From contig NC_068341.1 in NCBI RefSeq assembly GCF_014633365.1, positions 1,488,001-1,552,000 of the forward strand: a stretch of DNA of 64,000 nt, written 5' to 3'. This document shows positions 36,801-63,757 of the stretch, piece after piece. Both the position numbers and the translations under genes were made by a program. Source of the DNA: Diospyros lotus (taxonomy: Eukaryota > Streptophyta > Magnoliopsida > Ericales > Ebenaceae). Below the pieces are notes generated by a model. That model saw only the letters and a list, made by a program, of their open reading frames with translations. It had not been told where the DNA came from and did no database searches. Position 1 is the stretch's first letter; every line of letters starts with the position of its first letter.

Positions 36801-38478
36801 CAAGCAGCTGGAAAAAAAAAAAAAAAAAACAATTGGAATGAGTATAGAACCCTAAGGCTCTGATAACATGTCAACAAGAGTGAAGAATAATCCAATCTTA
36901 CTTTATTCCAATCGTAGGGATTACATATATACATGTCCAACAAGCTAATTAGACAACTGCCTAATAGAGAAGATTCCTAATCTACCTTAGGAAATTATAT
37001 ACAATAAAGGAAAGATCTTACAAGAGTAATCTACTGAAATATACAAGGAAATAAACTATAAACAAAAACAACAATCAATCAGTAACATACAAGGAAATAA
37101 ACAGCAATCAATCAATCAGTAACATATGAAAGAATAAAGAATAGGAAAGAATCCACCATAGCACTCGTTGATCTCTAACACATATTACAGACGATACAAA
37201 CTATATTGATATTCAAAATAATTGTATCTAAACTGTTTAACTATCTCAAAAATGTCTCTGAACTGCAGGTGCATAGAACAAGAGAAACATACCAAGAATC
37301 CAACAGCCTGTGTCACATGCTTCAATTCATCTGAAGATGAGCCTGCATACTGCATGAGAAAGTACATGAGACATGTTAATTTGAGCATAATATAGTTCAC
37401 ATGTGTCGCACCAAAAGTGCATCCCCACTCCCAGTTCCTATGTTACATGGACTCAGGGGGCAGGTGTCCAATATGAGTATGTATCCAAAGGTCGAAAAAG
37501 TCCTAGTGCATCCCCAATACCAGTGCCTAGTTGTCAAGAACATCGTCAAACGTGTTCATCACAAGTGAAGATCATGTTGAGAGCACGGCAGTCACAATTT
37601 GATCCAACCACGTATGTTGTCTGCACAACTAGATTTGGGTTGTGCAAACCCAGATCTGGATTTTTCTTTGAGATGACGGATGGAGGCATGTTTGACCACA
37701 GATAGTTGGCTCCAATGCATATTCTGTACCAGTACTGGTGTCGTATCGTGTCAACACCAATACAACACTAGCAAGTGCCAAGTCCTTATAACATGGACCA
37801 ATGCACCAGGCTCCTTACTTGAGGGTTGGTTGTTTTTGTATGCAGCCAAATCCTTGCTTGCAGAGAGGCTGACCAAATAATGCAAATACCAACAGAACTG
37901 CATAGCCAAACAACTGATGCTAATTTCCCAGGATCCTTATTAGGGTGGGAAAAGCTTGATCTGACCTATTAAAAAACATTGTTAGGGTGAGAGAAGCTGG
38001 ATTTGACCTATTAAAAAGAAAAAAAAACAGCTCGATCGGTCGAGGTTAAGGACTGTCCACTTCTGTGAGCAGCCAGCCCCATCACACAAACTGAGTTATG
38101 AATAACGTTTAATGCATATGTGCCTGACTGAGTAACGTCTATACCACCAGAAAGCTTATAAGACTGACGTTAATCTCCTAGGAGCCATCGCTACAGCAGA
38201 GAAGCTTGATCTGTCAAGAATGACTCACGTATATGGGCAGCCACATTATTTGAAATAACTACTGAGGAATGAGTAAGGTTTCTACATACCCCACTGATAA
38301 AAAAATAATATCAACCCGACCAGCAACTAATAATACCTTCAAGAAAGTATCATTTGACAAGTTATAAACTGTACTTACCTCTTCCTTTTCTTGGCCACAC
38401 CACAGTTCCAATTCAGCTAGCCCAGCCTTCACATATTCCCCATTGCTAAATGTGCAACACTCCCGATGAATAAGAAGA
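24725..38478 (-). CDS. Myosin XI globular-tail exons, second half, with stop
   Basis: 38478-38379 ([19 protein letters not shown]), 37349-37293 ([19 protein letters not shown]), 26200-26144 ([19 protein letters not shown]), 25208-25128 ([18 protein letters not shown]), 25012-24927 ([14 protein letters not shown] and SFLLDDDP) and 24845-24725 ([19 protein letters not shown], ending [12 protein letters not shown]). These match the end of the DIL domain and the C-terminus of plant myosin XI. The intron 37292-26201 is 11.1 kb. Confidence 0.9.
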
Positions 38479-41400: not shown

Positions 41401-44400
41401 AGGGGAAAAATGCCTTAAACTCTCCCCCATTGTCTGTTTGTAAAGTCTGTAATTTGATTTGAAACTGAACTTCAGCAAGTTTGTAAAAGGTTACAAAAGT
41501 GGACAGGGCATCTGAATTGAGTTTCAAGGGGTATAGCCAATTATATCCGCTATAGGCATCTTCAAAAATGATATAATATCGATGTCCTTCAATGGACATA
41601 GTAGGAGAAGGACCCCGTAAGTCTGAGTAAACCAATTCAAGAGGTTTCTTTACTGTAATTGGACAATCAGCAAAGAGAAGTTGACTAAGTTTGCCAATTT
41701 TACATGAATCACAAAAAGAGACATTGGAATGAGAACAAGGCAAACGAATTTTATTAAGAATCAAACGAAGTACATTGTGCTACATGAGCATTAGGTGACA
41801 ATCCATGACAGAATGGAAGTTGTCCCTTACATTTATTTGAAGGAAAAACATTACAATCGAACGAAGATGTACTACTAGAAACAGAATTAGATTCAATAGG
41901 CTGGACTGAAGCACAAGAAACAGCAGAATCAAGTGTTGAACTCAGTTGGTATAGCTCATCCTTAAGACATCTTTTGAGTAACACCTCCCCAGTACTCTTG
42001 TCCTTAATCAAACAAGAACCAGAGTTAAATTCTGCCACGAGATCATGGTCTCTTGTAAGTTGTGAGACACTAATTAGATTCTTTTTCATGGTAGGAACAT
42101 GTAAAACTTTTGGTAAAGAAATAGTTGAAATAGGTGTGGTTTGAGTACACAAATGTCCAAGACCAATATTAGAAATTGGAAGTTGTTTACCATTACTAAC
42201 GGAAACTTTATCACTGTCGTTGTAAGGAGCATGAAGTGAGAGGTTATTAAGGTTTGAGGTTATGTGGTTTGTAGCTCCGAAGTCAACAAACCAAGCCGGA
42301 TCTGTGAAAGGACGTTGTGACAAAGATGTATTATAATCAACAGGTTAAGAAAAATGATTATAATGAGTTCCTTGTGTAGAACCTAGATCACTCATGTAGA
42401 CCTCATTAGAATCACTAAGGGAAGCTACAAAGGCTCTAGAATCTGACCTTTGGAAAACCATTGGTGGCCTTCCAAAGCTTGAACTAGACATAGGAGAACT
42501 TTGAAAGTTTCTATCAAACCCATGATAACATTTATCAACAAAATGCCCTGGCTTGCCACAAAGCTGGCAATAAATCCTTTTTCCTGATTGTCTATCTCTA
42601 CCTCTTCCTCCTCGATTTACAAAACCACCTCTACTTTGAGCAAAACCTCCTCTATTATTCACAAAATTTCCAGAACTCCTCTGTGTATAAGCAGCCATAT
42701 TTACTTGCATAGAAGATGGCATAACTGACTCAACGTTGACAGTTGATGTATGTGCCAAATTCTTAGAGTTTAATCTTTGTTCATGCATTAATAACAAGTA
42801 CTGAACCTTCTCAAAATCTACATCATCCATTTGATATGTGATGAGAATGACTACTATCTCATAATCATAATCCAATCAATTTAGGATTGCAAGAAGCAAA
42901 TCCTTATCACTTAGAGGTTCCCCAATGGCTGCAAGAGAGTGGCCTATAGTTTTGATCTTAAGAATATAGTCATTTATAGACAACGAGTCTTTCTTAACTG
43001 ACCTAAGCTGCTACTTCAATTGAAAAGACTTGGCAATTGTTTGATGAGAGTATAAATTTTCAAGTGCAAACCATACCTCAACAGATGATTCATAGTGAAT
43101 CACCTGCACCAAAACTTCTTTGTCAATTGTCGAGAAAAGCCACCCAAGCAGCAACTGATCCGATCGCATCCAACTTAGAAATTATGGATTCATCACAGGT
43201 GCTTCGTGTTCGCCAGCATTAGGATCTGTGATATACTTAGAAGGAGTGATTTGTTAAGGAAGGATTGAAGATCAAACGCTCGAATTGTAACAGAAATTTG
43301 CGCCTTCCAAAAAATGTAGTTGTTCGGATCCAGTTTGATAGGTATAGCTAAAGGCTTTTGCCATCGCAGAAAAATCTGATTGCAAGGCAGAAGATAGAGA
43401 TAAAGAAGATCGAGGAGGAAGAAAAGAAGAGGCACTATGATCTGAATTGAACGCCATTGACCTTAGTCGTCAGCTTTGATACCATGTAATGATTGAATTA
43501 GGGCAGAAAGTAGAACACAAATGATGAGGAGGAAAGTGCTCTGTATTTCTCGATAGAAGAAGAATGAATGAATTACAGAAAAATAAGGCTAAGCTGATTA
43601 TATACTCAGCCAAAGCCTAAACTACCGACATAATAAAATGCACCAATCATAAGCGCAAGTTCAAAACTAATTGCTACAACATACAGCAACATACACAATA
43701 TAATTAAATAACAGAAACATCAAACACAGCTTATGTAATGTTTCCTTTCACAAGATTTGCTCTCTTTATCTTGTTGATTTATTACAGCAGTATCCTAGTA
43801 ATTCATAAATTGAGGAAGAGGGCTATCCTGGAGGATTATTGTTGAATGTGTTAAGGAGAGTGGTAAGTCAATAAACCTCCTGTTTCTTCATTGCTTTGCT
43901 GCTAGAGAGATTTGAAGGTTTGTTTTCCAGATTGTGCATTCAGCAGGTTAGCAGCTTTTAGCAAAAGATCTTTCATTCACATGGGGCTGAGGTTCTTCGT
44001 CTTCTGCTCAGAGTCATTTCTGGCATCTCTTGACTTTTCTTGTCATGTGGCACAATTGTTGCTAAAGGAATGATAGAGCTTTTGCCGTTGCGGACCATTC
44101 TATTCATACTCTAAAAATCCTATCCATATTTCACTTTCTTGGTCATGCTCCAGTTATGTTCATTTTTCTGTGTTCTTCTGTTCATTTCTTTTTCTTGATA
44201 TGTGTTTTAATTTCTAGTCCTCGTTTTTGGTTGGCCTGGTTTGACCCCTTCTCTTAGCAGTGTTTCCTTTCATTATCAGTTTTTTATCTATCAAAAGATA
44301 AAATAAAATAACACAAAATTAGAACTCATAAGTTGAGTTAATGGCAGCAGCAATGAAATTATTCCAGCTAGGAGAGTAGCAGTTGGTACCTATTAAAAAG

Positions 44401-47400
44401 TTGCATGTTAATATAAGAGTATATCTGTATAAACATCTTTTGACAGAGAATTGGAGGTACCTGGAACAATAACAAAGAGTCAACATGCATTAAAAAGAAA
44501 ATCACAATTTTCAGTAAATTTTGTAAAAAGTGAAGACTGCATACAAAATTTTGCTTCAATATGTCAAGGAAGCCATCTAGGTTCTCAATGATGTTCTTCC
44601 AGTAACTAGCTGGAGGAGAATCATTACTAATAGGTTGCCCAGATGATTGTAAAACATTTCCCCTTGATGTTTCTGGTGCCTGAAATGCAATTGGAGTTAC
44701 ACTAGAAGTTTGGAACATTACTTGATAACAATCAGAAACCAAACATTTAAAGAAGGACCATATCCAATCTGAATCATTTAAACAAAAGCCTAAGATATGA
44801 AAATACTCAAGAGTTCTACAACAAGCAACAATAGGAACACACTGGAGGAGATGAATGAGCCCTGATCCATGGCACAACTACATTTTAGCAATTGTTTTGA
44901 CACTGCATCATCAAACCATTTTGGAACAACCAAGGGATATGCTGTCCTGGAAAATAAAATTGAGATCCAGTTTTAGCAAGCAGGGTTCTACCTGGATACA
45001 GGAAGAAAGAAGTGGGGACAAGTCCTTCTTTAAATTGTCACGAATTATCCCATATATTTTCTCCACATAAGCAGTGAGCTGCTGCTTGAAAAGCAAAGCC
45101 GGATATTTAGCCTCAATCACTTGCACATCAAGGCCTCGGAAAGAAAGGTTGGCCAAAGAGGGGGAGCAACGGAAACTCTGTGATGATAAGAAAATCCTTT
45201 TATAAACAACACCACCAAGCCTTAATCCCACTAGACAAGAAAATCATCTTTTATCTAGTCCTAAAAATTAAATTAAAATCAAAAGACTTTTGTATGTTAC
45301 TCATGCATTTCTTTCAATAGTGTAATTATTTCACTATTTCTTACAGGAAAAAAAGAGTGTCCAGATTTCATGAGGCTCCCCGCTTAAGAGTTTCCAGGGG
45401 GTTGTTTTTGTACACAGCCTTACCCTTGCTTTGCAAAGAGGTTGTTTGTACAACTTGGACTCATGACCTTCTAGTCCCAAAAGGAATAACTTTACCATTG
45501 CTACTGAGGAGTAACCTCACAAGGAAAATTGTAAAGATAAGAGTAAATGCCTTGAGATTTTTGACATTATATAGAAAGCCTTCTTACTAGCCTGTCAATG
45601 GGATGAGCAGGAAAAATTGGTGTCACAAAATTAAAAACCATAATATACCAATTTACCATCCAAAGAAAACCTAATGTGATTTAAATAACAAGCTAAACAA
45701 ACTATAGATAAAGCGAGCAACAATTTCTAGAATCTCTAATGAGTTTCCCATATCATTGTATAGGTTAAGCAGTAATGAATACACGTCACAATGCAATACA
45801 CCCAATTTCACATCTCTCTTTCACCCTAAGCCAAGAGTATCTGCTGATCAAAACCGTCACACGCTACCAGTTTCTCAGCTCAGCTACCATTTGTTTCACT
45901 CTTCTTTGTTTAATGATCAAACTGAATGCCACTGACAACACACACAACCAATGGATTTTGATGTTAACAAAGTTAGTGTTATCTAATGTTCTACTTGAGC
46001 ATGCATGTCAAGTATTTAATGAGAATATAAGCTCAAAGACTAAAGTGGAAGCTATGAAAAGTGAGAGGAAGGTTGAAATCATCTACACTAGTAGAACTCA
46101 TATTAGTGAGATCTTTGACTTAGGTTTCAAAATGAAGGATGCACAATAGTTTAATAAACTTTTCTAAAAACAGTCTTCTAAAATGATAACTTTTACAAAG
46201 ACCATTAAAATACTTTTGAGGTTACGTTGGATTGAAGGATTTCAAACGAAGTCATTTGAAATCCATAATTTGCATGTCAAATTATGTCACTCGAAATTAT
46301 ATTAATTTGAAATTTAAGTGTGTGGATAACTATTATACATGGAAATTTCAAATTCAAGCATTCCAATCATTGAAAATTTTTTGAAAAAATAAAAATAAAA
46401 CTAAAAGGGTAATGCTTCAAGCAATGGTTAAGATCAATAAGTGCACTTTTTTTTAGGTAAGGAGCAATTCTATTGGTTGATGATAAATGTATCATATTTT
46501 AAAACATTTAGTCAACTAATAGGATTGTTTCGAAACTGAAAAAAGGTGCATCTAAACAGAAGGTGCACTTACTGCCCCTTAACCATAGAATAGTCAGCAT
46601 TACCCAACTAAAAAGTATATGCTTAAAAAGTATGTATGCATGTGTATATATATATATAATATCTCCCATTAATATGCAAACACCAGATTTGGTGCATGAA
46701 GCCCTGTCAAACTCTCTTTCCTAAAATACCCTCCAAGATTTGAACTTAAGACCCCTCTAAATTACAATGAATTTGTGAACAATTTTACTGCTACATCACG
46801 TCTTGTTTTGTTTAAACTTTTGGTTGGAAAACAAAAATAAAAACTAAACTACAATTGTCAAGCACCATCCAACGGACCTTCATTTGAAGATTTTTTATTT
46901 TTTATTTGTATGTGCATAGCATGAGCCGCCCTTCTAGAATATGTAAATACATATATATTATATATATGTATATATGCATATATGTATTTTATGTATATAT
47001 GCATGTATATGTAATAACATGAGCCACCCCTCTAGTATATGTAAATAAATGCTATCATACATACATGTATGCAGATATATATTGTATATATATCATGTAT
47101 ATATTGTACACATATTTTGTGTATATATACATGCATATGCATATAATGTATATACATGTGTATGTACATAAATGTATAATACGTATATGCATAGTTATGT
47201 ATATAGACATAGTATACATGCATATACATATATACATATTTGTATATATGTGTCTAGATGCATATATACATGTACATGTATACGTGTATGCACATATATA
47301 TGTACACAATATATACACAATACATACATATATGTATATATATGGTACATGTACATACATACACGTATACGTATATATATAGGTGTATATGTGCACACAT

Positions 47401-53400: not shown

Positions 53401-56400
53401 GAGTTGAAGTCAAATGGCTGGTTTTTCCCTTACCCTTGAGGAATGTTTGTACCAGTTGAGCCCATTGTAAATAATTCCTACCATCTAATCAATAGGATTG
53501 GTGGATTCCAGGAAGCTCTCCAATCCCTGATCCAATTCTGCCTTCCATTGATTGAGCCATTGGAGTCAATTCTCCACTTGCTAGATCTGGAGTCACGCCT
53601 GAATGTTCTGGCATGGCTATTTCAGTTGATGAGAAAGAGGTCGGATGAAATGAAGGCACGTTGAACACCAGAGATGGGCGAGAAAAATGTTGGAGAGCTG
53701 ATCTGGAGAAGCTGGAGGCGAGAGGGTAACGCACGCGTCGGCGCGTGGGGTCGGAGACGAATTGGACGGTGGCGCGTGGGGACGCGTGAAGACTCAGGCG
53801 GCGGTGGGTCTCCGATGGTCAACCGATCTGATGGCAGCAAACCCAATGGCAGTGGCAGTGCTAGTGGCCAGACAATGCACTGAAGGCACCCGAGCAGGCT
53901 AAGACCAATGGTGAAGAGGAACCCAATGAAGCGGTGGCGGATGATGTAATGAAGGCACTAGGGTTTTAGTGTATCAGCCTATTAGGCTCTGATAAACTTT
54001 TAGGATAAACTTAATAATCTCATTGCACTAACTCTGAACACAATCAGCTCTCTTATAGAGAGGAAATACAACAACAAAGGAAACAACCAGAAAGGAAAGA
54101 TAATCAACAATAAGGAAAAAGGAAAGATATATGTAAGATCCTAATTCTAGTTTAGGAATTAATCCTAACCAAATATCCATTGCCTTAATCTCGGATATCC
54201 TTATGATCCAACAATTATTATTATTTTTCATCTTCATTTCTTGAATAGCTTGTACACAGTTAATAAAAAACATTATATAAATATATAGTTATTCACACGT
54301 AGTATTTCAATTGGGTTGGAAAAAAAATTATATTTTCAAAAACAATACCCCCCCCCCCCCCCCTCTCCTTCCCTTTTCTTGGCTTGCCATTGGCCAACAG
54401 TTCCATATGAAACTTGTGTAATTTAACATTTTTATTGAGCCATGCACATACCCCATATCCTAATGCCAATTGTCAGATGTCCAATAGCAGTGCTTCACAA
54501 TGTTAAAGATAGGTTACAGATGTCCAGTACAAGGAAAGTACAATTCAAGTACAAGGAACAAGAAAACAAAAGTAATAGACCACATGCACCAGAAAAGTAG
54601 AGATAGATTCATATAGATCACATAATTAAAATCAATTATGGTACTTCTCAACAGGAGAGCAATTTTCCATGACCAGTTAGACATTCAATAAAACATAGTA
54701 TAGCATTCATTAAATTAGTTACAAAAAATATTCTTTTTGAGGATCTACTTATTAGCATTTCAATTTTTCATGCCAAAACACTGTCATTGCTAGATTTAGT
54801 TCATCAATTTTGGTTTCTTTTCATCTTTTTTCTTCTAAAAAGCAATTTGGGGAAATACATAGGAAATGAATTTTCAACCACTTCAGAACAATTTCTTGCC
54901 CATATTCTCAAACATCTATACATTCCTCAGGCATTAGATGCATTTTGGTAACCTTATTGACCAAGAGGACTCGGCCAAAATACAGAGTAAATAACTGCTA
55001 AATTTAACATAAATAAACAAGGCAGGCCAAAAGTTAACCTTGTCCACCAATAGATGTTAAGCCAAAAACACTAACAGGATCGACAATTTTATTTATTTGT
55101 TTTCTTCGTTTTTCTTTTGACAACAACCACATGGTAAGAAAATAAATGTTGAAGGAAGCGCAACCTCGGTACAAAGAATCAAAGCAAGTTAGTCATAGAG
55201 ACATATCATCAATAAAACTCAAAAAATTGCCAAAAGAAAAAAAGAAATGAGAATGGTTACCAAGTCATTTAAAAAATCCAAGAGTGTGTTATTCAAAAAT
55301 ATATGGATGGACTCCCATAATTGCCAAAAGCCATAAGTAACTTGTAAGTTCCTATATTGGTCAGAAACCTCAAGGGATTTTTGTGTGGTTTACCAAAGTA
55401 AAAATAAGTTAGTCAATAAGAATTTCATTACTCTGGTCATCCTCCCAAAGAATGATGTTGGAGTAGGTGGTGGTTTCCCTGAAGACACACCAGTAGCTTT
55501 CAGTGTCTTCTGAAGCAAGAACAACAATGTAGATGTATTTGATAGCCAATAAGCCATGAGGTGGTTGTTCTCTTGTGTCTGTACCATAAGCAAAAATATG
55601 AAAATACAAGATTGAGCACATCACATATTGGTTACCTGGATTTGAAAGTAAGGCCAAACAAACTTATGCAAAAAATGTACAATAAATAAGGAAAAATGTT
55701 ATCACTCAAAAAATTTAATCAAAGAAAGACTTTCTGGAAGGGATCAAAGTTTGAGGTGATGCGGACATGAATAACAATAGGACCTTTGTGGCCATAAGCT
55801 AGCCTTAAAAAAAATAGAAGGAACAAGAGAAAGACTATAAGGTAATAGCTGAAGAAAGAACATGGAGAACAACAGAGGAAAAGGCCCATTTGCCCCTCTT
55901 TAAATGTTGTGGATTTAGCATCTTTAAGTACTTCTACATCTTGTTAAAGAAAAACAACAGAAAAGGGGCCTGCAGATGGGGGGTGGGGGTACCATTCTTT
56001 GCTGAATTCATAATGCTAAAAGAAAGGCCTTTCAAACAGGATTCTCCAATCCAAAATGGTAGATTAATATGAAAAGATCTTCAATTAATCACCTTTAGAT
56101 AATTCAAATTTCCAAAATATATGGTTCTTGGATAGCCAAAAAGGAATTATCTTCTTCTATGAAAAGAAAAGTTACCTCTATTGCAGAACCAATAATTTGG
56201 ATAAGACGATCGAATATACTAGTTTTCTCTGCCTCAAAAGACTTCCAGTGTAGAAGGCATTTGTATATGGTAAAAGATGCAACTGGTTTTCCATGACTGA
56301 ACCCAATATCTTGACTCACACATTTGATAAGAGCATCCAGATTCTCCTGAGGCAAAGAAAAAATGTGGTCACAACTGAAACAAGTTCCCTTTAATTATGC

Positions 56401-59400
56401 CAGCATCTCAATTTTGTTGCATATAGAAGGCCAGTAAAGAATCCTTTGTTTTTCTTTTTTTTTTAAGAGAACTGAAGAAATAAGAACATTAAATCATGGA
56501 CATGTTTCCATGTTCTTTTCAAAAAAATAAAACATAAACTCAGGTTGGCTGAATAAGATTCGGCTCCATATTGGAGGCAGACACAGGAATCATGCTTAGA
56601 ACAGGCCAAAGCAGCAGATGACATATGTGCAGGGGCCTTAACGAACATGGTTTAGTTTGGCAGCTAACTCTTAATAAACAAAGGATCAATTGTTGGTCAA
56701 ATTAAAAATAATATTTTGCAGGTGGGTCCTCCAAAATAGACTCTTTCTTGACTCATTGCATTATCTTACATTTCTCTTTCTCCATTATCTTAGAAAAACC
56801 ATAAAATAGATGTCATGTATATGGTTCAACATCATTTCATACAACCCCTAAATTTTATGACAGCCAAAAGCACTGAATTATCATGGTCAACTACTTGTAA
56901 CTTATGCAAAAATTAAGTTCATTTCATGCAAATTACTTCCTCCCATGCCAAAATGAAATGGTATTTTATAAAGAATCTAATGGAATTAGGCAAAAACTAA
57001 CATGAAGGGAAACTTTGAAATACTTCAACCAAGGCTGCCTACAATTGGATCTATGGTTCTAGTTATGGAAACTCTAGAGGTATTGGAGTTCTATATAAAT
57101 TACATCTACACTCACACTTATCTATAAGTGTTGAAAGTTCTATAAAGTAAAAGAAGGGTTCAAGGATTTTTTTTTTTTATATATGCACTTGATTTTCAAA
57201 GGTGCTACAGACTGATAGTCTAGGATGGAACAGGTCGTTTCAGATCAACTAAAGGCAAAGGAAGAAAAGGAAAAGGCAGGGGAAAATTTGGGCTTGAATT
57301 ACTATTTTTTGGGTCTGAAAGAGAACAAGGACAAAAAAGACAGGAACAAGATATTACAAAATTCCACCAGAATTTTAAGAATAAACTCTGAAAATAGGTT
57401 GAATAGGCACAAATACTTCAACCAAATTCCATTTACAACAATTACATACCTAATAATCCCACTAAGTGGGGTAGGTTACATGGATTCTAACTTTCCAATC
57501 TCTATCCATGACCATCTTTTGTGATGTCATTATAATACATATCATATTCATACCTAAGTGTTTTCAATCAAATTTTTCTATCTTTCTATATAAACATCTT
57601 TCGTTTCATCCACTCCTCACAGGAGAATTTGTCAGTCTTCTTTCACATGAACAAACCATCTAAATCGCATCTTATCATTACTTTAACCTTATTACTAAAC
57701 TTGATCTTCAAGTCTCGCAATAACATCAACCACACTTCCATTTTTATTAAACTTACATTCCATATAGTCAGTTTCAATCTACTTAAATTGAAACCTTTGA
57801 ATTCTGAGGTGCCCCTCCATATTCCAAACTTAGTAGTAGCACCTTCTTTTGCCTCATCTGCTAATACGACACTATCAGCAAATATCATACGACATGGCAC
57901 CTCTTCTTAAATGTGCCTAGTGAGTTCATCAATCTCTAGAGCAAAAAGATAAGAGGCTGGTACAGATCATTGATGTAATTTAATTGCAACTGGAAGATCC
58001 TCATTATCTACTCCACATATTCTAACACATGTTTATATTCCATAATACATGTCCTTAATAACCTACATGCAAGCAAATCAGACTGCCTTGTTATCTAAAA
58101 CCTTCAATAAAACTTCTCTACAACTTTATCATACGTTTTTTTATTTCTATAAACACAATAAATAAATCTATTTATTTCTCTATAAACACCAAATTCCTTT
58201 TGGGAAAAAATATTAAGACTACAAAATTAAGAGACTTTACATAGAATGTACTAGGGCAATAAACACTCTGCGTATGACGAAAAAATACACGTACTACAAT
58301 TACACGCAAGTACAACCATCTGCAACAATTGAAAAGATTAGCAAAATGCACCTAACCTAACCAAAGAAGACATTCTATAAGAAAGAAAATCTTATTCTAA
58401 GTTTCCAACAACAAAATACATAAAATGAAGCTCAAAATCCCTCAAAAAGTTCACAAAATATCCAAATTATCACCATATAAAATTCCAAATTCAACTCAAT
58501 TCTTCTTTTCTATGTTTGATATCACTTAAACAAGTATTTCTATGTCAGATGCTCCATTTGAGCAAACTTTGTGTGTTAAATATGCTTAAAGAATTGAAGT
58601 TTCAGAAGCAAGATGTCAGATACCAGTTTTCTCACATTTTCAGCAACCATAGAAAGAAACTTTTTAGCAAAATGAAGCTCAAAATCTCTGAAAAGGAGTA
58701 ATTTTTATCCAGGATGGACATACATGCTGCCTTTCAATCTGGGATCTCCTCATTGATTCTGTACCAAACTTTTTAGCAGCTGCTACATTTTGTGGTTCCT
58801 GTAGGAAAAAGCTTTCCTTTGTCACCAGAGAAATTAATACCATACCACAAAAAAAAAAGTAAAACAGTAGCGCATGTAGAATTCAGCAGAATACTCAGAG
58901 GAGTTATGCACATACATGCTGCCTTTCAACCTGGGATCTCCTCATTGATTCAGAACCAAACTTTTTAGCAGTATCTATACTCTGTGGTTCCTGTAGGAAA
59001 TAGTGCTACTTTGTGACCAAGGAAATTCACACTATCCCAACAATGCTGCTATTAAAGGAAAAAATGCAAAAACATTACACCAGTTCTATGTTGCTTCACT
59101 CACATGATAACCATTTTCTGCATGCTGCAAAGATAAATAGCATGGGTAAGAATAAAATCATTAGAGACAAAAAAATAAGACACTAATAATTCCTGCAAAA
59201 TGTTGACCTGAGTTGTTTTGATTTCTAAATGTCCTGACATTTTCCCAGCAGGTGAGTTTATCAAAGCTTGATGCTGCAGGAGTTGGTCTTCAGTCTCAAT
59301 GTCAGAAAGTTTCTCTTCAAGGCTGAAATAAGATGCAAATAGTTCAAACAATATAACCAAAAACAAACTTTGGGTAGGATATATGCATGTTCTGGCACCA

Positions 59401-62400
59401 GTTTGAGTTTCACAGGCTGAAAAAAGTAAAGCAGCCTTGCAAAAGGAGAAAATATCTCAATGGTACAACCTATGCATAGCAGTCTTCAACTGAATTATCT
59501 TTGACTCTGCCTCCAAAGCCTGCTTCAACCGTTCTTCACTAAGCTTGTTAGTTTCTTCATATTTTTTCTCTGTTTCATCAATTTTCTTTTCTAGAGAACT
59601 TACTAAATCCTGCAAAATTTGTTACAGTAAGTAAAGCATCAAACTTTTCAGCAAAATTAAGGTATCTCCAAAGATGAGCTAAAGGGAAAGCTGTATACAG
59701 CTGGCACTTCACTTGTTGAGAATCCCACATCGCCTCCACAAGGGAGACCTGGGCTATATATAAGGAGGAGGATCCCTCCATCTATTAAGCTAGCTTTTCA
59801 GGTTGGAGTTCTACCTCTAACTTCTCACATCACTGTTAAGTGTGAGCTGGCTGCCAAACACAACATTACCTATATGGACTCACATCCTCTAAAAGCTTCA
59901 GAAGTCAAGAGGAAAGAAGTGAAAAACCAAATGCAAAAGCTGGAATAATTGTAAGTGTACTTTGCAAATGTTGTGTATTAAAAGTTGCAACAGAACAAGT
60001 TTATTTTGCATGATATATATATAGAGATACGATGTTGTTACTAGGCTCCAAGCAAGCTTACCTTAAGCTTTTCATTTTCAGCCATAAGCTTATTTATCAT
60101 TTCATTATCAATAACAGGGACCTCCTGAGCAGCTGAAATTTGCTCTGCTGCTTTCTCTTCAAGCTCGTGTTCCTTAATTAACAATTCTTTGGTTTCTTGA
60201 AACTGTGGTTGCATCTCTTGCAAAGCAGACTGCAAGTTTTCATTTTCCTTTCTTTTTGCTTCCTCCAGGGCAGCCTGCAACAAACAAGATAAGGACACAC
60301 AACAGGGCACTAGCAATTTAATTGTTATGTTGCATAAAGCAGTAGAAGATACGAACTAATTTGGATTTTGACTTAATTTTAAAGGCCAAAAGTATACCCA
60401 AAGAGAAAAAAATAAACAATGTATACATGTGAGGCAATAACCCACGAGATTCATGTGCCATCCTATAAATTAATAAGAATGGGAAGAGGGTCCCAATGAG
60501 AGACTCCAAAAAGGTAATCAGTTACTCATATAATTTGCTGAAATAAAAATGTGAAAGGTGGTAGCCAAGATTAGCTGAAGTAGGTGGAAAAACTCAGATA
60601 AGTACCTGAATTTAATGTCAATTTTGGGGGACTAAACGAAGAGAGAAATATCTGCATTTTTAATATGTGATTAGGCAAAAAAAATAAGTTTACATATATA
60701 AAAATTATAAACTTTGGTTAACAATTGAGAGAGTTTGATTAAGGACTTAATTAAGGCAATCAAGGTTAATTGACAATGATTAATAAAGTCCCAGCTCTAA
60801 AAAATCTGTAGAGTCTTATAACAAGTTCTAGAAACATGATTAGGTGGCGAAATTGATGAAACATGCAGGTGAGATGTCTTCCTAAAGAAACACTTGCATT
60901 TACGGCTAGGCAGCAACAAGAAAGAGAGAAAGGTGGCAGCTGCTTCAGCTGAAGCAGATAGCTGAGTGTCCCTTCAGGAAACTGCCACCAAGCAAGGGTT
61001 AAGGGGCAGACATTGGGCTGCTACACATTCAGCTGCTTAGAAATGCCTATAAATAGGCCTTCAATCTCTCATTTTCAGCACCAAATGAGTTAGCTTGAGA
61101 GGCTTTCAAGTAAAAGGCATTACAGTGAAAGTGCAGAAAATAGTGAGAAAAGCTGTAGGGTGGAGAAAATTCTGCTCAACTTAGGGACAAAATTTGAGGA
61201 ATAAATATTGATTGAGGTAAGTGCATGATTATGGTTATTTTATATTAGTATTATGCATAAATGACTTTATGGAAGCTTGTTATATATTAAAACATGATAA
61301 TATGCATGAAATGTATGGGCATTGTGAGCATTATGCATAATGTAGGTCAAGCATGCAGGAAGGTAAGGTTCATTGCCAAAAAAGTGTGTGTGTAAACCCT
61401 CTTGGCATGGGAAATGTGTGGAATGATGTTGCATGAGGGGGAAATGATGGGCATAGTGCACCCGTTAACAAGAAAAATAGGGGAAAACTGAGGCTGGCTT
61501 CATGAAATGTGTGACTGACAAGCATGATGTGTGATTGAATTGCAATATCATTCTATTCTTATTTATTGCATTTTAACATCCCATACCATGCAAGGGATGG
61601 GAGATTGACCGGCAAAGGGCTTGAGAATGAAGGGAGATATGCACGGCATTATGTATGCACATACGCTTGAAGCATGTTACCTTTAGGTAGAAATTAAATA
61701 TTGCTGTATTCAGTTAAATGTGATACAAAATGAAGATAATGCTATGTTTTGAAATCATGCTTAGAGTTGCTCTACTTTATATCTTATGAACAAGCTTGAT
61801 TAGAAACTGAAATTAAGTGTATGCAAGGCAGGCAGCAAGAGACCAGCACTGATAGTCAATTGTGGGCATGACGGTTGATTGGCAGGTTGACTACAAAAAA
61901 CAGAGGCCAAGAACAAACAGCTGGTGGTTGTGATAGTCAACTGGAGAATTGACTGTTTCCACAGGCAATTAACCAAAAGCAGACAAAAAATGAGAAGAAA
62001 AAGGATGAGGATATGGTGAGAGCAAGTCTTACTCATTGAAGTTAGGGCATTTCATACCATCACAAGCCAAGGATGTACCTTGGCTTTCTGACTCAGGTCG
62101 ACCTATGGGACAAGGCAGATCACAACCAAGTTAATATACCCCAAGGTAAGTCAATAAAACAGGTGTACCTTGTAATGGAGAGGAGGCACAGCAATTCAGC
62201 ACCAGTACAGACCTTCCTATAGATAAACCATATTTCTGGCATATCTAAGCAACGTTGACAACATAAACTAAAGCTTGAAAAATTATAAACTAAAGCTTGT
62301 AATTTTTGAAAAAAAAAAAAAATCAAGGCATCCCCAAGGAAGAGCTAAAGGGGATGCAATTGCAAGTACACAGTTGACAGTACTATGAACTATGTACAAA

Positions 62401-63757
62401 GAGACCATTATCCTATATAGAATTCACAAGCTCTAAAAGCTTCAGAAGTCAAGTGGAAGTAATGAAAAAATTAAATGCAAAAACTGAAATAGCTTAGAGC
62501 ACTTTCCAAATAATATATACAAAAAGTTGCAACAAAAAAAGAGTTCACTTATATATACAGACACACACAGCGACAGAGAGACAATATTGTTAATAGGCTC
62601 CAAGCAAGCTTACCTTAAGATTTTCATTTTCAGCCATAAGCTTTTTAACTGTTTCATTATCAATAACAGTGACCTCCTGCACAACCGGAATTTGCCCTGC
62701 AGCTTTCTCTTCAATCTCATGTTCATTAATTAGCAATTCTTTGGTTTCTTGAAACTGCAGTTGCATCTCTCGCAAAGCAGACTGCAACTTTTCATTTTCC
62801 TTTCTTTTCGCTTCCTCCAGGTCAGCCTGCAACAAACAGACAAGGACAAAAAACAGGGCATTAGCAATTTAGTTGTTATGTTTTCCAAAGCAGTAGAAGA
62901 AATGAATTAATTTGGATTCTGAACATTAAATAATAATTTTAAATGCCAAAAGCAAACCCAAAGAGGTAAAACTAAAAGATATATTCATATACCCAGATTC
63001 ATGTTGGTGGATGCAAAACCAAAAAGGGTAAACCAGATCACCATACATCAATACAAGGCACCTATTCTCGGCATCTCTAAGCAAAGTTGACTACATATAA
63101 CTTCTTACTACTCAAAAGTCAGTCAACAATTCTTCACTAAGCTGGTTGTTTAAACATTTTGTTGTTTCATAAATTTTCTTTTCTAGAGAACTTACTAAAG
63201 CTTGCAAAATATGCACAGTAAGTAAAACATCAAATTTTTCGTAAAAAAATTTAAGGTATCACCAAAGAAGAGCTGAAGGGGATGCAATTGCAAGTATACA
63301 GTTTACAGTAATGAACTGTGTACAAAACAGACCGTTATCATGTAATGGAACCCACTCAAGCAGAAGTAAGTGAAAGAATCAAATGAAAAAGCTGAAATAA
63401 CTATGTGCACTTTATTAGTGATGCACAAAAAGTTGCAACAGAAAAAGTTAATTTTCATCATATATATATATAGAGAGAGAGAGACACACGCGCGCGCGCC
63501 CGCGCATAGATGCAATATTGTTACCAGGCTTCAAGCAAGCTTACCTTAAGCTTTTCATTTTCAGCCATAAGCTTATTAATCGTTTCATTATCAGTAACAG
63601 TGACCTCCTGCACGATCAGAACTTGTCCTGCAGCTTTCTCTTCAATCTCATGGTCCTTAATTATCAATTCTTTGGTTTCTTGAAACTGCAGTTGCATCTC
63701 TTGCAAAGCAGACTGCAAGTTCTCTTTTTCCTTTCTTTTTGCTTCCTCCATGTCCGC
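24725..63757 (-). CDS. XI-A: Class XI myosin heavy chain, coiled coil and globular tail (5' end outside window)
   Basis: Plant myosin XI is an actin-based motor that moves organelles and vesicles; the C-terminal globular tail (DIL domain) binds cargo adaptors. Exons on the minus strand: 63757-63545, 62826-62614, 60274-60062, 59609-59470, 59322-59208, 59124-59104, 58990-58916, 58798-58724, 56346-56176, 55578-55432, 45177-44992, 44679-44545, 44460-44390, 38478-38379, 37349-37293, 26200-26144, 25208-25128, 25012-24927, 24845-24725 (TGA). All junctions keep the frame and use GT donors and AG acceptors. Diagnostic blocks are [68 protein letters not shown] and [17 protein letters not shown]. The tail looks intact. 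Motor and IQ repeats lie right of the window. The symbol is inferred from microsynteny; XI-B or another XI member is possible. Introns of up to 11 kb are filled with retrotransposons. Confidence 0.93.
25572..26014. repeat. Foldback MITE with long terminal inverted repeats
   Basis: The left arm (about 25600-25690, TTTTACCTTTGTCTCAATTT onward) is the inverted counterpart of the right arm (about 25925-26014), matching for about 90 bp with mismatches; both arms include AACTTTAATTTTGTTTCA. The 21-bp segment starting ATTGAAACGAAGG also occurs directly repeated at 25572-25592 and 25994-26014. The centre holds a small GC-rich hairpin. It sits in a myosin intron; the superfamily is uncertain. Confidence 0.65.
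26464..26708 (+). repeat. Possible partial LTR with TATA box
   Basis: It starts TGTTATGATGCAAACC and carries TATAAATAGAAC near 26681-26692, resembling an LTR U3 region in + orientation that is cut by the gypsy LTR beginning at 26709. No duplicated target or partner LTR supports it. Confidence 0.3.
26709..27083 (-). repeat. Gypsy 3' LTR (element-minus orientation)
   Basis: On the minus strand it starts TGTTAGGACCCTTCC after a purine tract (GGTCCGAAGGGTAT) and ends GAGACCCTGACA. A CT-rich block precedes the end, as in the LTR at 1233-1538. The + start TGTCAGG and nearby CCTGACA form a small palindrome that makes the edge slightly ambiguous. Confidence 0.7.
27122..27457 (-). pseudogene. Gypsy integrase C-terminus and chromodomain
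   Basis: Minus-strand frame with [34 protein letters not shown] and chromodomain [20 protein letters not shown]. The integrase part continues at 28330-28530 (MKQFAD-like and SERVF-like remnants). A DNA element inserted exactly between the two parts. Confidence 0.85.
27589..27620. repeat. 32-base G homopolymer
   Basis: An uninterrupted run of G inside the captured-gene element. It could form a G-quadruplex and is a likely spot for sequencing error. Confidence 0.85.
27806..28032 (+). pseudogene. Captured exon 1 of an APE1L-like AP endonuclease / exonuclease III gene
   Basis: From the ATG the frame reads [16 protein letters not shown] and then [18 protein letters not shown], the N-terminus of plant exonuclease-III-type AP endonucleases (as in Arabidopsis APE1L). 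TWNANSFL is the start of the catalytic fold and includes the metal-site asparagine. A one-base shift near 28000 disrupts the frame: the expected LDPDIISIQ is found one frame over. The exon ends at CAA|GTAACT, the original splice donor, followed by some intron. The 5' UTR-like sequence is also captured. The rest of the gene is absent, so this is a transduplicated fragment. Confidence 0.8.
28560..30669 (-). pseudogene. Gypsy gag and protease start, split by a foldback element
   Basis: Minus-strand pieces: 30669-30214 (N-terminal coiled gag, then a stop), 30210-30100 and 29335-28991 (retrotransposon gag domain, WTNVRG through EEFNKL and FEELMSL), and 28938-28560 (zinc knuckle [14 protein letters not shown], then the protease start [14 protein letters not shown]). 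The protease site reads DRG instead of D(S/T)G, so it would be inactive. The frame then jumps to the integrase C-terminus near 28545. Confidence 0.85.
29351..30084. repeat. Foldback/MULE-like DNA element in gag
   Basis: 734 bp flanked by a 15-bp direct repeat, ACCTTGGTACCAAGC (29336-29350 and 30085-30099). The ends are inverted repeats GTTAAAATCTCGATTTTA and GTTAAAATCAAGATTTTA. The left side also has two direct copies of about 60 bp (CGATTTTA and ACCCCCAAACGATT blocks), and the middle folds back (TTAGAGGATG against CATCCTCTAA). Removing it rejoins the gag codons around [12 protein letters not shown]. It has no coding capacity. Confidence 0.75.
30714..31039 (-). repeat. Gypsy 5' LTR (element-minus orientation)
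   Basis: On the minus strand it ends CACCGTGACA three bases before the tRNA-Met primer site. The proposed start is TGTTAGAATCAAGG. A TATATA/GAGAGA microsatellite lies within it (30818-30851). Another TGTTAG start about 36 bp further right is possible, so that border is approximate. Confidence 0.6.
31132..33952 (-). pseudogene. Copia element A pol (protease, integrase, RT, part of RNase H)
   Basis: Blocks in order on the minus strand: protease C-terminal part around 33950-33617 ([18 protein letters not shown]), integrase zinc-finger region [15 protein letters not shown] near 33460, integrase core [11 protein letters not shown] near 33205, [17 protein letters not shown] near 33030, [15 protein letters not shown] near 32100, [13 protein letters not shown] near 31800, [11 protein letters not shown] near 31630, and the connection-domain [12 protein letters not shown] near 31310. 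Several stops and frameshifts separate these pieces, so it cannot act on its own. Confidence 0.88.
34669..34734. repeat. 33-bp tandem duplication in copia gag
   Basis: GTCCGAGTCCCTTGTTTAGT starts at 34669 and again at 34702. The two units are nearly identical and the length keeps the frame. Confidence 0.85.
35051..36622 (-). mobile_element. Non-autonomous gypsy element with 5-bp target duplication
   Basis: LTRs at 35051-35336 and 36271-36622, both starting TGATAGGATAC and ending CTGCCTATCA on the + strand. CTCAC flanks both sides (35046-35050 and 36623-36627). On the minus strand the primer site TTTGGTATTAGAGC sits next to the right LTR, and a purine tract GTGGGGGGAGTAT precedes the left LTR. 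The interior of about 930 bp encodes only gag remnants. The right LTR carries about 60 bp extra. The element inserted into copia A gag after that element was in place. Confidence 0.88.
35479..35667 (-). pseudogene. Gag fragment of the non-autonomous gypsy
   Basis: The minus-strand frame [20 protein letters not shown], followed by [10 protein letters not shown], matches the gypsy retrotransposon-gag domain. Further upstream, remnants near 36060-36240 encode a coiled N-terminal part. No protease, RT or integrase is present. Confidence 0.75.
36869..37180 (-). repeat. 5' LTR of copia element A
   Basis: On the minus strand it starts TGTTAGAGATCAACG and ends CTTGTTGACA, directly followed by the tRNA-Met-like primer site. 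No second copy is in the window because the element's 3' end is missing. Confidence 0.7.
37787..37868 (-). repeat. Au-type SINE fragment
   Basis: The minus strand reads CAGCCTCTCTGCAAGCAAGG, then GGCTGCATACAAAAAC and GGAGCCTGGTGCA, matching the 3' half of plant Au SINEs. The tRNA-like head is missing. Confidence 0.6.
38486..38530. repeat. A-run followed by (GA)n
   Basis: A homopolymer A run passes into a GAGAGA run a few bases upstream (minus-strand sense) of the myosin exon at 38478. Confidence 0.85.
38560..39678 (+). pseudogene. LINE reverse transcriptase remnant
   Basis: Frame-shifted plus-strand pieces read [35 protein letters not shown] (the KAPGPDGF block), [25 protein letters not shown] (the FADD catalytic box), and [11 protein letters not shown], then [11 protein letters not shown]. 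This is a plant L1-type LINE with many stops. It is cut at about 39679 by copia B; T/A-rich DNA ending near 44310 (TATCAAAAGATAAAATAAAA) may be its 3' end. Confidence 0.85.
39679..41764 (-). pseudogene. Copia element B integrase - RT - RNase H
   Basis: Blocks on the minus strand: integrase [18 protein letters not shown] near 41730, [11 protein letters not shown] near 41620, TDNGGEF near 41420, [12 protein letters not shown] near 41340; [16 protein letters not shown] near 40490, [13 protein letters not shown] near 40170, [11 protein letters not shown] near 40040; and the connection YLSYTRPS near 39720. Frame breaks occur at the integrase/linker junction, near 40540 and near 39900. Confidence 0.88.
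41754..43457 (-). pseudogene. Copia element B gag and protease
   Basis: Gag starts [12 protein letters not shown] at 43457 and continues in shifted frames to an intact zinc knuckle [14 protein letters not shown] (near 42570). The protease begins [16 protein letters not shown] near 42300: DFGA replaces the usual D(S/T)GA, which would abolish activity. Confidence 0.85.
43691..44389. other. Intron sequence, possible LINE 3' portion
   Basis: No exon. The T-rich stretch ending TATCAAAAGATAAAATAAAA (to about 44312) looks like the tail of a plant LINE in + orientation and could be the other side of the LINE split by copia B. Confidence 0.35.
44390..56346 (-). CDS. Myosin XI globular-tail exons, first half
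   Basis: 56346-56176 (57 codons, [19 protein letters not shown]), 55578-55432 (49 codons, [12 protein letters not shown]), 45177-44992 (62 codons, [20 protein letters not shown]), 44679-44545 (45 codons, [20 protein letters not shown]) and 44460-44390 (71 bp, [19 protein letters not shown]). The 71-bp exon leaves AG, completed by T at 38478 to encode serine. The 10.2-kb intron between 55431 and 45178 holds the SIRE-like LTR and a complete copia. Confidence 0.9.
45350..45523 (-). repeat. Au-type SINE
   Basis: The minus strand shows an A-box-like part (AGCAATGGTAAAGTT), a B-box-like GAGTCCAAGTT, then CTTTGCAAAGCAAGGGTAAG, GGCTGTGTACAA and GGGGAGCCTCATG, ending in a T run. This order is that of Au SINEs (tRNA-derived). 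It is diverged but nearly full length. Confidence 0.7.
46220..47861. mobile_element. Putative non-autonomous TIR element with a large TA/CATA block
   Basis: The ends GGTTACGTTGGATTGAAGG and GCTATGTTTGGATGAGG (reverse complement of the right end) look like terminal inverted repeats of the GTTTGGAT type. TTGA flanks both sides (46216-46219 and 47862-47865). There is no coding sequence; the many Tyr/Ile-rich ORFs inside come from the simple repeat. Removing it restores continuity of the surrounding LTR. Confidence 0.5.
46940..47695. repeat. Long degenerate (TACATA/TATG)n low-complexity region
   Basis: About 750 bp composed almost entirely of TA, TG, CA and ATAC units with no exact long period, ending in a CACACA/TATATA run. 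ORFs in all frames encode only Y, I, M, C, H and T-rich peptides and are artefacts. Confidence 0.85.
48896..49136 (-). repeat. 3' LTR of copia C
   Basis: 241 bp, from TGTAAAAACTTTTAGG to TGATCCAACA on the + strand, preceded by target copy ATTAT. Next to it, CTTGAGGGGGAGTG on the minus strand is the polypurine tract. Confidence 0.85.
49303..51990 (-). pseudogene. Copia C integrase - RT - RNase H
   Basis: Minus-strand blocks: integrase [15 protein letters not shown] near 51900 and [13 protein letters not shown] near 51810; [20 protein letters not shown] near 50530, [20 protein letters not shown] near 50330, [12 protein letters not shown] near 50240, [11 protein letters not shown] near 50090; RNase [21 protein letters not shown] near 49470 and TKHIEID near 49310. 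Breaks occur near 51600, 51350, 50225, 50160 and 49590. The RT catalytic YVDD is retained. Confidence 0.9.
52297..53734 (-). pseudogene. Copia C gag and protease
   Basis: Gag frames run from 53734 through [19 protein letters not shown] (about 53485), [20 protein letters not shown] and [17 protein letters not shown] zinc-knuckle-like [15 protein letters not shown] lies near 52750. The protease keeps an intact DTGA ([11 protein letters not shown] near 52420). A short internal repeat (ERSAMISNR and EKSAMVSNR) marks a duplication in gag near 52845-52925. Confidence 0.85.
53990..54213 (-). repeat. 5' LTR of copia C
   Basis: 224 bp, from TGATAAACTTTTAGG to TGATCCAACA on the + strand, followed by target copy ATTAT. 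It lacks the 17-bp AAGATACAAGAAAGG-type duplication present in the other LTR. Confidence 0.85.
54258..55431. other. Myosin intron sequence
   Basis: About 1.2 kb of AT-rich intron with a C homopolymer near 54349-54363. Nothing coding recognised. Confidence 0.6.
57430..58160 (-). pseudogene. LINE reverse transcriptase remnant
   Basis: The minus strand encodes [15 protein letters not shown] and then [16 protein letters not shown], the FADD-box region of a plant LINE RT, followed by STOP-ridden GFNLSRLKL and CDLDGLF pieces. Upstream YDKV (near 58130) matches the AYDRV block. It is a short decayed fragment within a myosin intron. Confidence 0.75.
58724..58798 (-). CDS. Myosin XI linker exon, copy 2 of 2
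   Basis: 75 bp, 25 codons, phase 0, reading [20 protein letters not shown] then IERQH, with the same acceptor (TTTCCTACAG) and donor (CAT|GTATGTC) as copy 1. The intron between the copies is 117 bp, long enough to splice. Either copy, or both, joins in frame to the exon at 56346. Confidence 0.88.
58916..58990 (-). CDS. Myosin XI linker exon, copy 1 of 2
   Basis: 75 bp, 25 codons, phase 0, reading [20 protein letters not shown] then VERQH. Acceptor TTTCCTACAG, donor CAT|GTATGTG. It corresponds to the segment between rod and globular tail in the family. An almost identical exon lies 192 bp downstream. Confidence 0.88.
59104..59609 (-). CDS. Myosin XI rod exons, including a 21-bp microexon
   Basis: Three exons. 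59609-59470 (140 bp) encodes [19 protein letters not shown] and QLKTAM. 59322-59208 (115 bp) encodes [20 protein letters not shown]. 59124-59104 (21 bp) encodes HAENGYH. The first ends with two bases of a codon that the second completes; the others are in phase 0. The donor of the second exon (CAG|GTCAAC) is weak. Confidence 0.85.
59714..59829 (+). repeat. TRIM-like solo LTR with TSD
   Basis: 116 bp starting TGTTGAGAATCCCACATCG and ending ACTTCTCACA, with a TATA box CTATATATAAGG. TCACT is duplicated on both sides (59709-59713 and 59830-59834). It lies in the intron after coiled-coil exon copy 3 and is absent from the equivalent introns of copies 1 and 2. Confidence 0.78.
60062..60274 (-). CDS. 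Myosin XI coiled-coil exon, copy 3 of 3
   Basis: 213 bp, 71 codons, phase 0, acceptor TTTGTTGCAG and donor AAG|GTAAGC. It begins [18 protein letters not shown]. It reads EMQPQFQE where the other copies have EMQLQFQE, placing a proline in the helix. It is next to the following constitutive exon (59609-59470). The intron towards copy 2 is enlarged by an insertion of about 1.7 kb. Confidence 0.9.
60470..62190. other. Unclassified insertion in the myosin duplication
   Basis: Comparing the duplicated introns shows that this stretch of about 1.7 kb is present only between exon copies 2 and 3. It contains a promoter-like CCTATAAATAGGCC near 61042-61055 and several AGTCAACTGG/GGTTGACT-like motifs at 61855-61960, which recall LTR sequences. 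No coding region or clear LTR ends were found. Confidence 0.45.
62614..62826 (-). CDS. Myosin XI coiled-coil exon, copy 2 of 3
   Basis: 213 bp, 71 codons, phase 0. Acceptor TTTGTTGCAG and donor AAG|GTAAGC. It begins [18 protein letters not shown] and ends MAENENLK. It differs from copies 1 and 3 by scattered substitutions, none a stop. It lies 931 bp from copy 1 measured end to end. Confidence 0.9.
63124..63208 (-). pseudogene. Decayed copy of the myosin 140-bp rod exon
   Basis: The minus strand reads LVSSLEKKI, then a degraded region and [10 protein letters not shown], clearly derived from the exon 59609-59470 ([19 protein letters not shown]). The acceptor TTTTGCAGG has become TTTTGCAAG, an internal deletion shifts the frame, and the 3' part is lost. 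It lies between coiled-coil exon copies 1 and 2, showing that the duplicated unit originally held two exons. Confidence 0.8.
63462..63500. repeat. Compound microsatellite
   Basis: TATATA, GAGAGA, CACACG and CGCGCG runs follow each other in the intron after coiled-coil exon copy 1. Confidence 0.85.
63545..63757 (-). CDS. Myosin XI coiled-coil exon, copy 1 of 3
   Basis: 213 bp, 71 codons, phase 0 at both ends. Acceptor TTCATTGCAG and donor AAG|GTAAGC. It starts [18 protein letters not shown] and ends MAENEKLK, with a charged heptad pattern typical of the myosin XI rod. Its flanking intron sequence is also shared with copies 2 and 3. Sequence just right of it (from about 63950) repeats the upstream flank of copy 2, so more copies could lie beyond the window. 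Confidence 0.9.

What the first reader, a model, noticed from the sequence alone, without database searches (positions are those of the whole stretch)
60062..63757. Tandem triplication of a myosin XI coiled-coil exon, all three copies open and spliceable
Three exons of exactly 213 bp (71 codons, phase 0 at both ends) encode near-identical rod segments and keep good acceptors and donors. Any number of copies can be joined in frame, so the locus could make myosins with one, two or three rod modules, or choose one as a mutually exclusive exon. I know of no plant class XI myosin described with this layout. Flanking intron similarity shows whole units of about 0.9 kb were duplicated.
Basis: partly seen in the sequence, partly recalled or inferred. 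Interest (0 to 1): 0.86.

Follow-up and report, generated by a model that had tools for sequence, protein, structure and literature searches.

The report
Eightfold tandem myosin XI rod exon
In what is apparently the date-plum genome, one plant myosin gene carries eight side-by-side copies of a single rod exon, seven of them with intact splice signals, so it is predicted to make a motor protein whose rod would be about three times the usual length.

Summary
The window ends inside the array: the same genome holds eight copies of this exon in a row, three in the window and five just upstream. All eight are open and multiples of three long; seven have GT-AG borders, and one upstream copy (E3) has lost its donor, GT to TT. 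A stop-free 2,019-residue class XI myosin model spans them. Long unit alignments are only 70-81% identical, so an assembly artefact is unlikely. The copies are under purifying selection (dN/dS 0.30, bootstrap 0.20-0.43), looser than in single-copy relatives. Introns of 718-2,339 bases, GT-AG borders and phase 0 fit none of three known causes of mutual exclusion. I predict serial inclusion into one long rod of helix-break-helix modules; no transcript was available. Rod expansion at this exon recurs in other angiosperms. Clusters of similar rod exons in myosin XI are already described for grasses, where cDNA supports constitutive splicing (PMC3850447). Hence: a new variant of a known kind.

The parts
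63545..63757 (-).
62614..62826 (-). Copy E7 of rod exon A, 71 codons, phase 0-0
60062..60274 (-). Copy E8 (last) of rod exon A, 71 codons, phase 0-0; proline at module residue 23
63111..63199 (-). Relic of exon B between E6 and E7: acceptor CAG replaced by CAAG, alignment to B ends at nt 99 of 140, stop
59470..59609 (-). Exon B, the intact next rod exon, only after E8
59208..59322 (-). Exon C, end of rod
59104..59124 (-). Micro-exon H (7 codons)
58916..58990 (-). Linker exon D1, 25 codons, phase 0-0: first copy of a second tandem exon duplication
58724..58798 (-). Linker exon D2, 25 codons, second copy (9 of 75 bases differ)
56176..56346 (-). Exon F, start of globular tail
55432..55578 (-). 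Exon G, globular tail
44992..45177 (-). Exon I, globular tail
44545..44679 (-). Exon J, globular tail
44390..44460 (-). Exon K, globular tail
38379..38478 (-). Exon M, matches the Pfam DIL domain (24.6 bits, cut-off 24)
37293..37349 (-). Exon N, globular tail
26144..26200 (-). Exon O, globular tail
25128..25208 (-). Exon P, globular tail
24927..25012 (-). Exon Q, globular tail
24725..24845 (-). Last exon R with stop codon

Best explanation
This is a tandem amplification of one coiled-coil exon (A) of a class XI myosin gene, eight open copies in all with three in the window, and the seven copies with intact splice sites are predicted to be spliced in series into one long, segmented rod. Shown: eight copies in one gene, reading frames, splice sites, relics of exon B between copies, a stop-free gene model from a likely start methionine to the stop, purifying selection on the copies taken together. 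Inferred: the first duplication likely took exon A, the following intron and the 5' part of exon B; the B fragment's acceptor was likely disabled before further amplification, because five of six relics share CAAG where B has CAG; that left exon A as the only usable exon of each unit. Inferred: copy E3 (upstream of the window) would be skipped, since its donor is TT and the exons on both sides still join in frame. Predicted: each module folds as a 48-residue helix, a 7-residue break and a 14-residue helix, so seven modules would give a rod of about 635 residues against about 200 in single-copy relatives, i.e. a longer, multiply hinged tether between the motor heads and the cargo-binding tail. 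The lever arm is not touched, so step length would be expected to stay the same while reach and tail-to-head autoinhibition could change.
For: Eight copies at one locus. Lengths 180, 222 and six times 213, all open, all with AG acceptors, seven of eight with GT donors; acceptor scores rank 22-37 of 37 and the seven GT donors 16-27 of 36 against the gene's other introns. dN/dS within the array 0.30, bootstrap 0.20-0.43, largest of 300 replicates 0.58; single pairs 0.14-0.53. Neutral simulation: all eight stop-free with probability 0.002 and 0.0009 at 0.10 changes per site and copy, from two starting copies, treating copies as independent. Exon identity 0.87 against 0.79 and 0.82 in 130-base flanks. 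B relics broken while A stays open. Gene model of 2,019 residues with one terminal stop. Module model: helix 2-49, helix 57-70, pLDDT 86.9. Precedent: cDNA supports constitutive splicing of the grass rod-exon cluster (PMC3850447).
Against: No transcript or protein of this locus was seen: no Diospyros protein for it stands in the best 120 rows, although the C6 paralogue does (P0092). Constraint is looser than in single-copy relatives: copies break 1-5 of 27 conserved columns (single-copy median 1), and E4 and E8 carry prolines in the helix, as do only 2 of 96 single-copy modules. E3 has lost its donor. For the window's three copies alone the dN/dS interval is 0.23-0.72, with one bootstrap replicate up to 1.69, so they alone do not exclude weak constraint. 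Mangifera isoform models X1 and X2 carry one module where X3 carries five. GT-AG introns were required by my aligner, so they are partly by construction.
Confidence: 0.6

Rival explanations
1. Variable inclusion: transcripts carry different numbers of A modules, so the gene makes rods of several lengths.
For: All copies are phase 0 and multiples of three, so skipping or joining any of them keeps the frame. At one Mangifera locus isoform models hold five (X3) or one (X1, X2) module.
Against: Splice sites of seven copies are as strong as those of the gene's other exons. PMC3850447 found no supported alternative splicing in plant myosins and cDNA joining the grass cluster exons (passages, section). 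The Mangifera join lies inside the module, where template switching or a modelling error is possible.
Confidence: 0.2
2. Mutually exclusive choice of one copy per transcript.
For: Similar length, frame and sequence of neighbouring exons, as in mutually exclusive clusters.
Against: No frame penalty, no border incompatibility seen, introns of 718-2,339 bases; a coiled-coil segment can be repeated without breaking a fold; a quick antisense search between the flanking and inner introns showed nothing better than 16 bases at 94% in the lines returned, output cut.
Confidence: 0.05
3. Relaxed by-product: the array grew by unequal exchange, the gene is redundant beside its paralogues, and copies are decaying or mostly skipped.
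For: E3 donor loss, prolines in the helix of E4 and E8 and extra breaches of conserved columns; two paralogous loci on C6 and C12.
Against: All eight frames open, dN/dS 0.30; motor, neck and tail exons without stops.
Confidence: 0.13
4. Assembly artefact.
For: None found; no reads were available.
Against: Units are 70-81% identical in alignments over 500 bases, far too different for long-read assembly to confuse, and each intron has its own indels and insertions.
Confidence: 0.02

Closest known systems
Monocot (Liliopsida) myosin-11E1 and -11E2 rod exon clusters (PMC3850447, sections 6 and 8 read whole)
   Same: Class XI myosin; a run of similar exons of the same length and phase lengthens the coiled-coil region; mutual exclusion considered; paper cites cDNA of Festuca for constitutive inclusion.
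   Different: There 10 and 14 similar exons corresponding between the two paralogues, hence old; said to replace conserved C-terminal region 2. Here eight copies in a eudicot, the copies group together by species, relics of the next exon remain, and the gene sits among myosin-6-like and -8-like relatives. Whether the same exon is involved could not be settled.
[quoted passage not shown]
   Same: Extra rod sequence in class XI myosins; probably the same phenomenon seen in the expanded proteins.
   Different: The paper gives no repeat structure for them; the subtype of this gene in that naming was not tested.
Expanded predicted proteins in other plants: Protea (3 whole modules), Mangifera X3 (5), Reevesia and Diplodiscus (6 each), Zostera (about 7)
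   Same: Repeats of the same rod exon A sequence.
   Different: Periods differ: 71 residues in Protea, about 90 in Mangifera and 87 in Reevesia with part of B included, shorter repeats inside the exon in Acer, Catharanthus, Glycine and Bauhinia. They are annotation models; I did not see their genes.
Mammalian myosin Va alternative exons between coiled coil and tail (passage in PMC3935558)
   Same: Modular exons in the tail of a related motor class.
   Different: Not tandem copies of each other, as far as I recall; alternatively spliced by tissue.

Membership tests
Class XI myosin | Myosin motor with P-loop and full-length conserved head | tested here: met
   Spliced model contains GESGAGKTES, LEAFGNAKT and DIYGFESF; motif meaning recalled
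Class XI myosin | DIL domain tail | tested here: met
   Exon M matches PF01843 at 24.6 bits, cut-off 24; whole tail aligns to P0005
Class XI myosin | Six IQ motifs | not tested
   Neck exons align to P0005; IQ motifs were not counted
Class XI myosin | Groups with plant class XI myosins in a tree | tested here: met
   83% identity over 1,305 columns to Actinidia P0005; in a starred set with it and the C6 paralogue; no class V or VIII outgroup was used
Monocot-type 11E rod exon cluster | Run of similar exons, same phase at both ends | tested here: met
   Eight copies, phase 0-0
Monocot-type 11E rod exon cluster | Same exon and same subtype as in grasses | tested here: inconclusive
   No grass 11E sequence was fetched; the paper's numbering starts the cluster at exon 25, my model has A as exon 23 of an uncertain 5' end
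Monocot-type 11E rod exon cluster | Constitutive inclusion in cDNA | not testable with these tools
   No Diospyros transcripts held
Mutually exclusive exon cluster | Joint inclusion shifts the frame | tested here: not met
   180, 222 and 6 x 213 bases, all divisible by three
Mutually exclusive exon cluster | Intron too short for both exons (donor to branch point under 50 bases, PMC5740500 passages) | tested here: not met
   Introns between copies 796, 1124, 1551, 1171, 718, 718, 2339 bases
Mutually exclusive exon cluster | U2/U12 border incompatibility | tested here: not met
   AG acceptors in all eight and ordinary GT donors in seven; E3 has TT
Mutually exclusive exon cluster | Competing docking and selector RNA structures | tested here: inconclusive
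   Crude antisense search, output cut
Mutually exclusive exon cluster | No reads that join two copies | not testable with these tools
   No RNA reads

The most novel reading that the evidence does not exclude
Exon A of the myosin-6/8-like class XI myosins is a recurrent length switch of plant motors: in many angiosperm lineages this one rod segment has been multiplied independently, by whole-exon duplication (Diospyros, Protea) or by repeats inside or across the exon (Mangifera, Acer, legumes, Malvaceae, Convolvulaceae, Zostera), so that rods of one orthologous motor range from about 200 to 800 residues, and copy number of a 71-residue helix-hinge-helix module sets the reach of the cargo tether. 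Diospyros, with eight copies, is among the most extreme cases.
Probability: 0.4. Interest if true: 0.75.

Novelty: new variant of a known kind. Interest (0 to 1): 0.55.

Why it matters
If the copies are used, one gene has roughly tripled the rod of a cytoplasmic-streaming type motor in small modular steps, with the steps still readable in the DNA, including how the neighbouring exon was silenced. The recurrence of expansion at the same exon in distant plants would make a natural series of motors that differ mainly in rod length, so the open question of what the rod of a plant myosin does (spacing, autoinhibition, dimer stability) could be tested by comparing or trimming them.

Tried and rejected
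Rejected: 'three copies' (eight); 'mutually exclusive' (see membership test); 'assembly error' (unit divergence). Rejected of my own: I first took the six B relics as independent decays and so as a clean control; one search shows five of six share CAAG in place of CAG, and in five of six the alignment to B ends at nt 83-99 (one at nt 32), so they most likely descend from one already dead fragment and count as one event. A simple heptad-register scan of the rod gave unstable registers and is not used. A gap-phase test by DNA alignment was crude: 20 of 41 exon gaps were multiples of three against 47 of 180 and 40 of 153 in the flanks, with gaps split by the aligner. Pfam found no family for exon A itself (best 13.5 bits, cut-off 27). 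Paper searches: 'myosin xi' with 'exon duplication' gave 0 papers; 'diospyros lotus' with 'genome assembly' and 'myosin' 0; searches gave no paper on this gene in their listings; these cover open PubMed Central papers only.

Papers: PMC3850447 sections 6 and 8 whole plus passages; passages only of PMC8873201, PMC7397272, PMC3935558, PMC5740500, PMC11524226; others as search listings.

Full report
Where it is. The window is G000:C4:1488001-1552000 of a 630-Mb genome. A published D. lotus paper gives 617.66 and 647.31 Mb for two other assemblies or versions (passages).

The array. A probe of one copy with flanks gave 11 matches: 8 on C4 between 1548025 and 1558170, 2 on C6 and 1 on C12. In window-style numbers continued upstream (add 1488000 for C4) the copies are E1 70158-69979 (60 codons), E2 69182-68961 (74), E3 67836-67624, E4 66072-65860, E5 64688-64476, E6 63757-63545, E7 62826-62614 and E8 60274-60062 (71 each); none holds a stop, all follow AG, seven precede GT, and E3 precedes TT. 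The best other GT near the end of E3 lies 19 bases downstream and would shift the frame. The exon before the array ends at 71632 and the only intact exon B follows E8.

How it arose. Between the copies lie six relics of exon B, after E1 to E6; none was found after E7. Five of six have CAAG where exon B has its CAG acceptor, and in five of six the similarity ends at nt 83-99 of the 140-base exon. The simplest reading, an inference, is a first tandem duplication with one break inside exon B, early loss of the fragment's acceptor, and further amplification of the unit. The copies group as E2-E3-E5 (weak support, 44) and E4-E6-E7-E8 (94), with E1 and the former placed with weak support; the two groups are interleaved along the gene, which suggests blocks of more than one unit or exchange between units.

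Is the gene sound? Aligning the Actinidia protein P0005 to the genome with GT-AG introns required gave 22 head, neck and rod-start exons without a stop after a likely start methionine; 16 downstream exons were placed by hand and read through to a stop at 24725. With all eight copies the model has 2,019 residues, with E3 left out 1,948. The start is uncertain: the first aligned residues before the methionine include a stop.

Selection. Mean dN is 0.12 and dS 0.40 within the array, ratio 0.30, bootstrap 0.20-0.43 in 300 replicates; without E3 0.29; for E6-E8 alone 0.39, 0.23-0.72. Against the C12 paralogue the seven copies with an estimate give 0.12-0.29, E1 could not be estimated. Neutral chance that eight copies stay stop-free is 0.03 and 0.02 at 0.05 changes per site, 0.002 and 0.0009 at 0.10, and lower beyond; this treats copies as independent and so overstates the case somewhat. 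Compared with 96 distinct single-copy modules of 71 residues, the copies break 2, 1, 4, 4, 2, 5, 1 and 4 of 27 conserved positions (E1 to E8; single-copy median 1, maximum 15), and E4 and E8 have prolines in residues 1-44, as have 2 of the 96. So: constrained, but less than a lone copy.

Structure. An AlphaFold2 model of E8 with E7 and E6 as alignment (3 sequences, one chain) has helices 2-49 and 57-70, mean pLDDT 86.9, blocks around residues 41-60 at 70 and 67. 71 residues is ten heptads plus one, so a heptad register would shift by one per module unless the break absorbs it (arithmetic, inference).

Splicing. Scored against the gene's other 36 donors and 37 acceptors, the acceptors rank 22 (E1) to 37 and the GT donors 16 to 27. 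E3's TT donor still scored 1.2 in this simple matrix because of pseudocounts; a TT donor is taken as unusable from general knowledge.

Relatives. Three protein searches returned 309 distinct proteins, 120 rows each; the second was aimed at the array, so frequencies are biased. Of the first 209, 156 could be anchored and 127 of these have exactly 96 residues between the anchors, i.e. one module. Of 309, 284 gave a rod length (one of them negative, an artefact): 201 lie at 180-215 residues and 72 at 228 or more; the longest is Hibiscus cannabinus with 799, against 706 for the Diospyros model with eight copies. On a tree of 72 hand-picked rows made without rod columns, 29 are expanded and the label needs at least 13 changes, 12 by starred branches alone; changes can be gains or losses. 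Expanded rows are 22 of 40 in the part of the tree with the Diospyros gene and 7 of 32 in the other part. Of 37 modules from seven multi-module species, 29 have their closest match in the same species: all of Diospyros (8), Protea (3), Reevesia (6), Diplodiscus (6), 4 of 5 in Mangifera, but only 1 of 6 in Zostera and 1 of 3 in Ipomoea. This speaks for separate amplifications in the first five, or for exchange between copies; it is open for the last two. Many of these proteins are automatic gene models.

Comparison with print. PMC3850447 (section 8) reports that monocot myosins 11E1 and 11E2 have insertions of ten and fourteen exons with the same frames and split codons and similar sequences, that they look like mutually exclusive exons, and that two Festuca cDNA clones covering exons 21 to 27 support constitutive splicing; it also mentions long insertions in some 11A myosins. 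That is the nearest precedent and the main reason for predicting serial inclusion here. Passages of a cotton survey mention a myosin with 52 exons and lengths to 2,034 residues (PMC7397272), and of a maize survey a class XI gene with 52 exons (PMC3935558).

Verdict. A real and striking exon array, larger than reported, in a gene that looks functional; its use in mRNA is untested; the kind is known from grasses, while this instance, the fossil of exon B and the recurrence across angiosperms seem not to be described in the papers I could search.

Noticed in passing
58990-58724: Two tandem 25-codon linker exons (9 of 75 bases differ) between rod and tail; the Actinidia protein has one such segment, to which both align.
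   Followed up: partly
60500-62200: The intron between E7 and E8 holds a dispersed repeat with 83 matches in the own genome, lower bound, mostly partial at 65-79% identity.
   Followed up: partly
45178-55431: A large intron holds what reads as a Copia-like retrotransposon with terminal repeats (about 54.2-48.9 kb), seen by eye in the sequence.
   Followed up: no
34000-43700: Further Copia-like stretches in introns by eye; the whole gene spans about 92 kb.
   Followed up: no
G000:C6:40062361-40062681 (L015): In the C6 paralogue the same exon is single but 107 codons long, with internal repeats of a PVMQE-like hinge motif: a second way of lengthening the same segment in the same genome.
   Followed up: partly
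G000:C4:1555624-1555836 (L009), upstream of the window: Copy E3 has an open frame but a TT donor, apparently a recent loss.
   Followed up: yes
P0001, P0109, P0159: Three isoform models of one Mangifera locus carry five (X3) or one (X1, X2) module, joined inside the module.
   Followed up: partly
P0124: A seagrass (Zostera marina) myosin XI of 1,977 residues with about seven diverged modules; if real, an old expansion.
   Followed up: no
46600-47700: Long AT-rich TATA/TACA-type simple-repeat tract in an intron, by eye.
   Followed up: no
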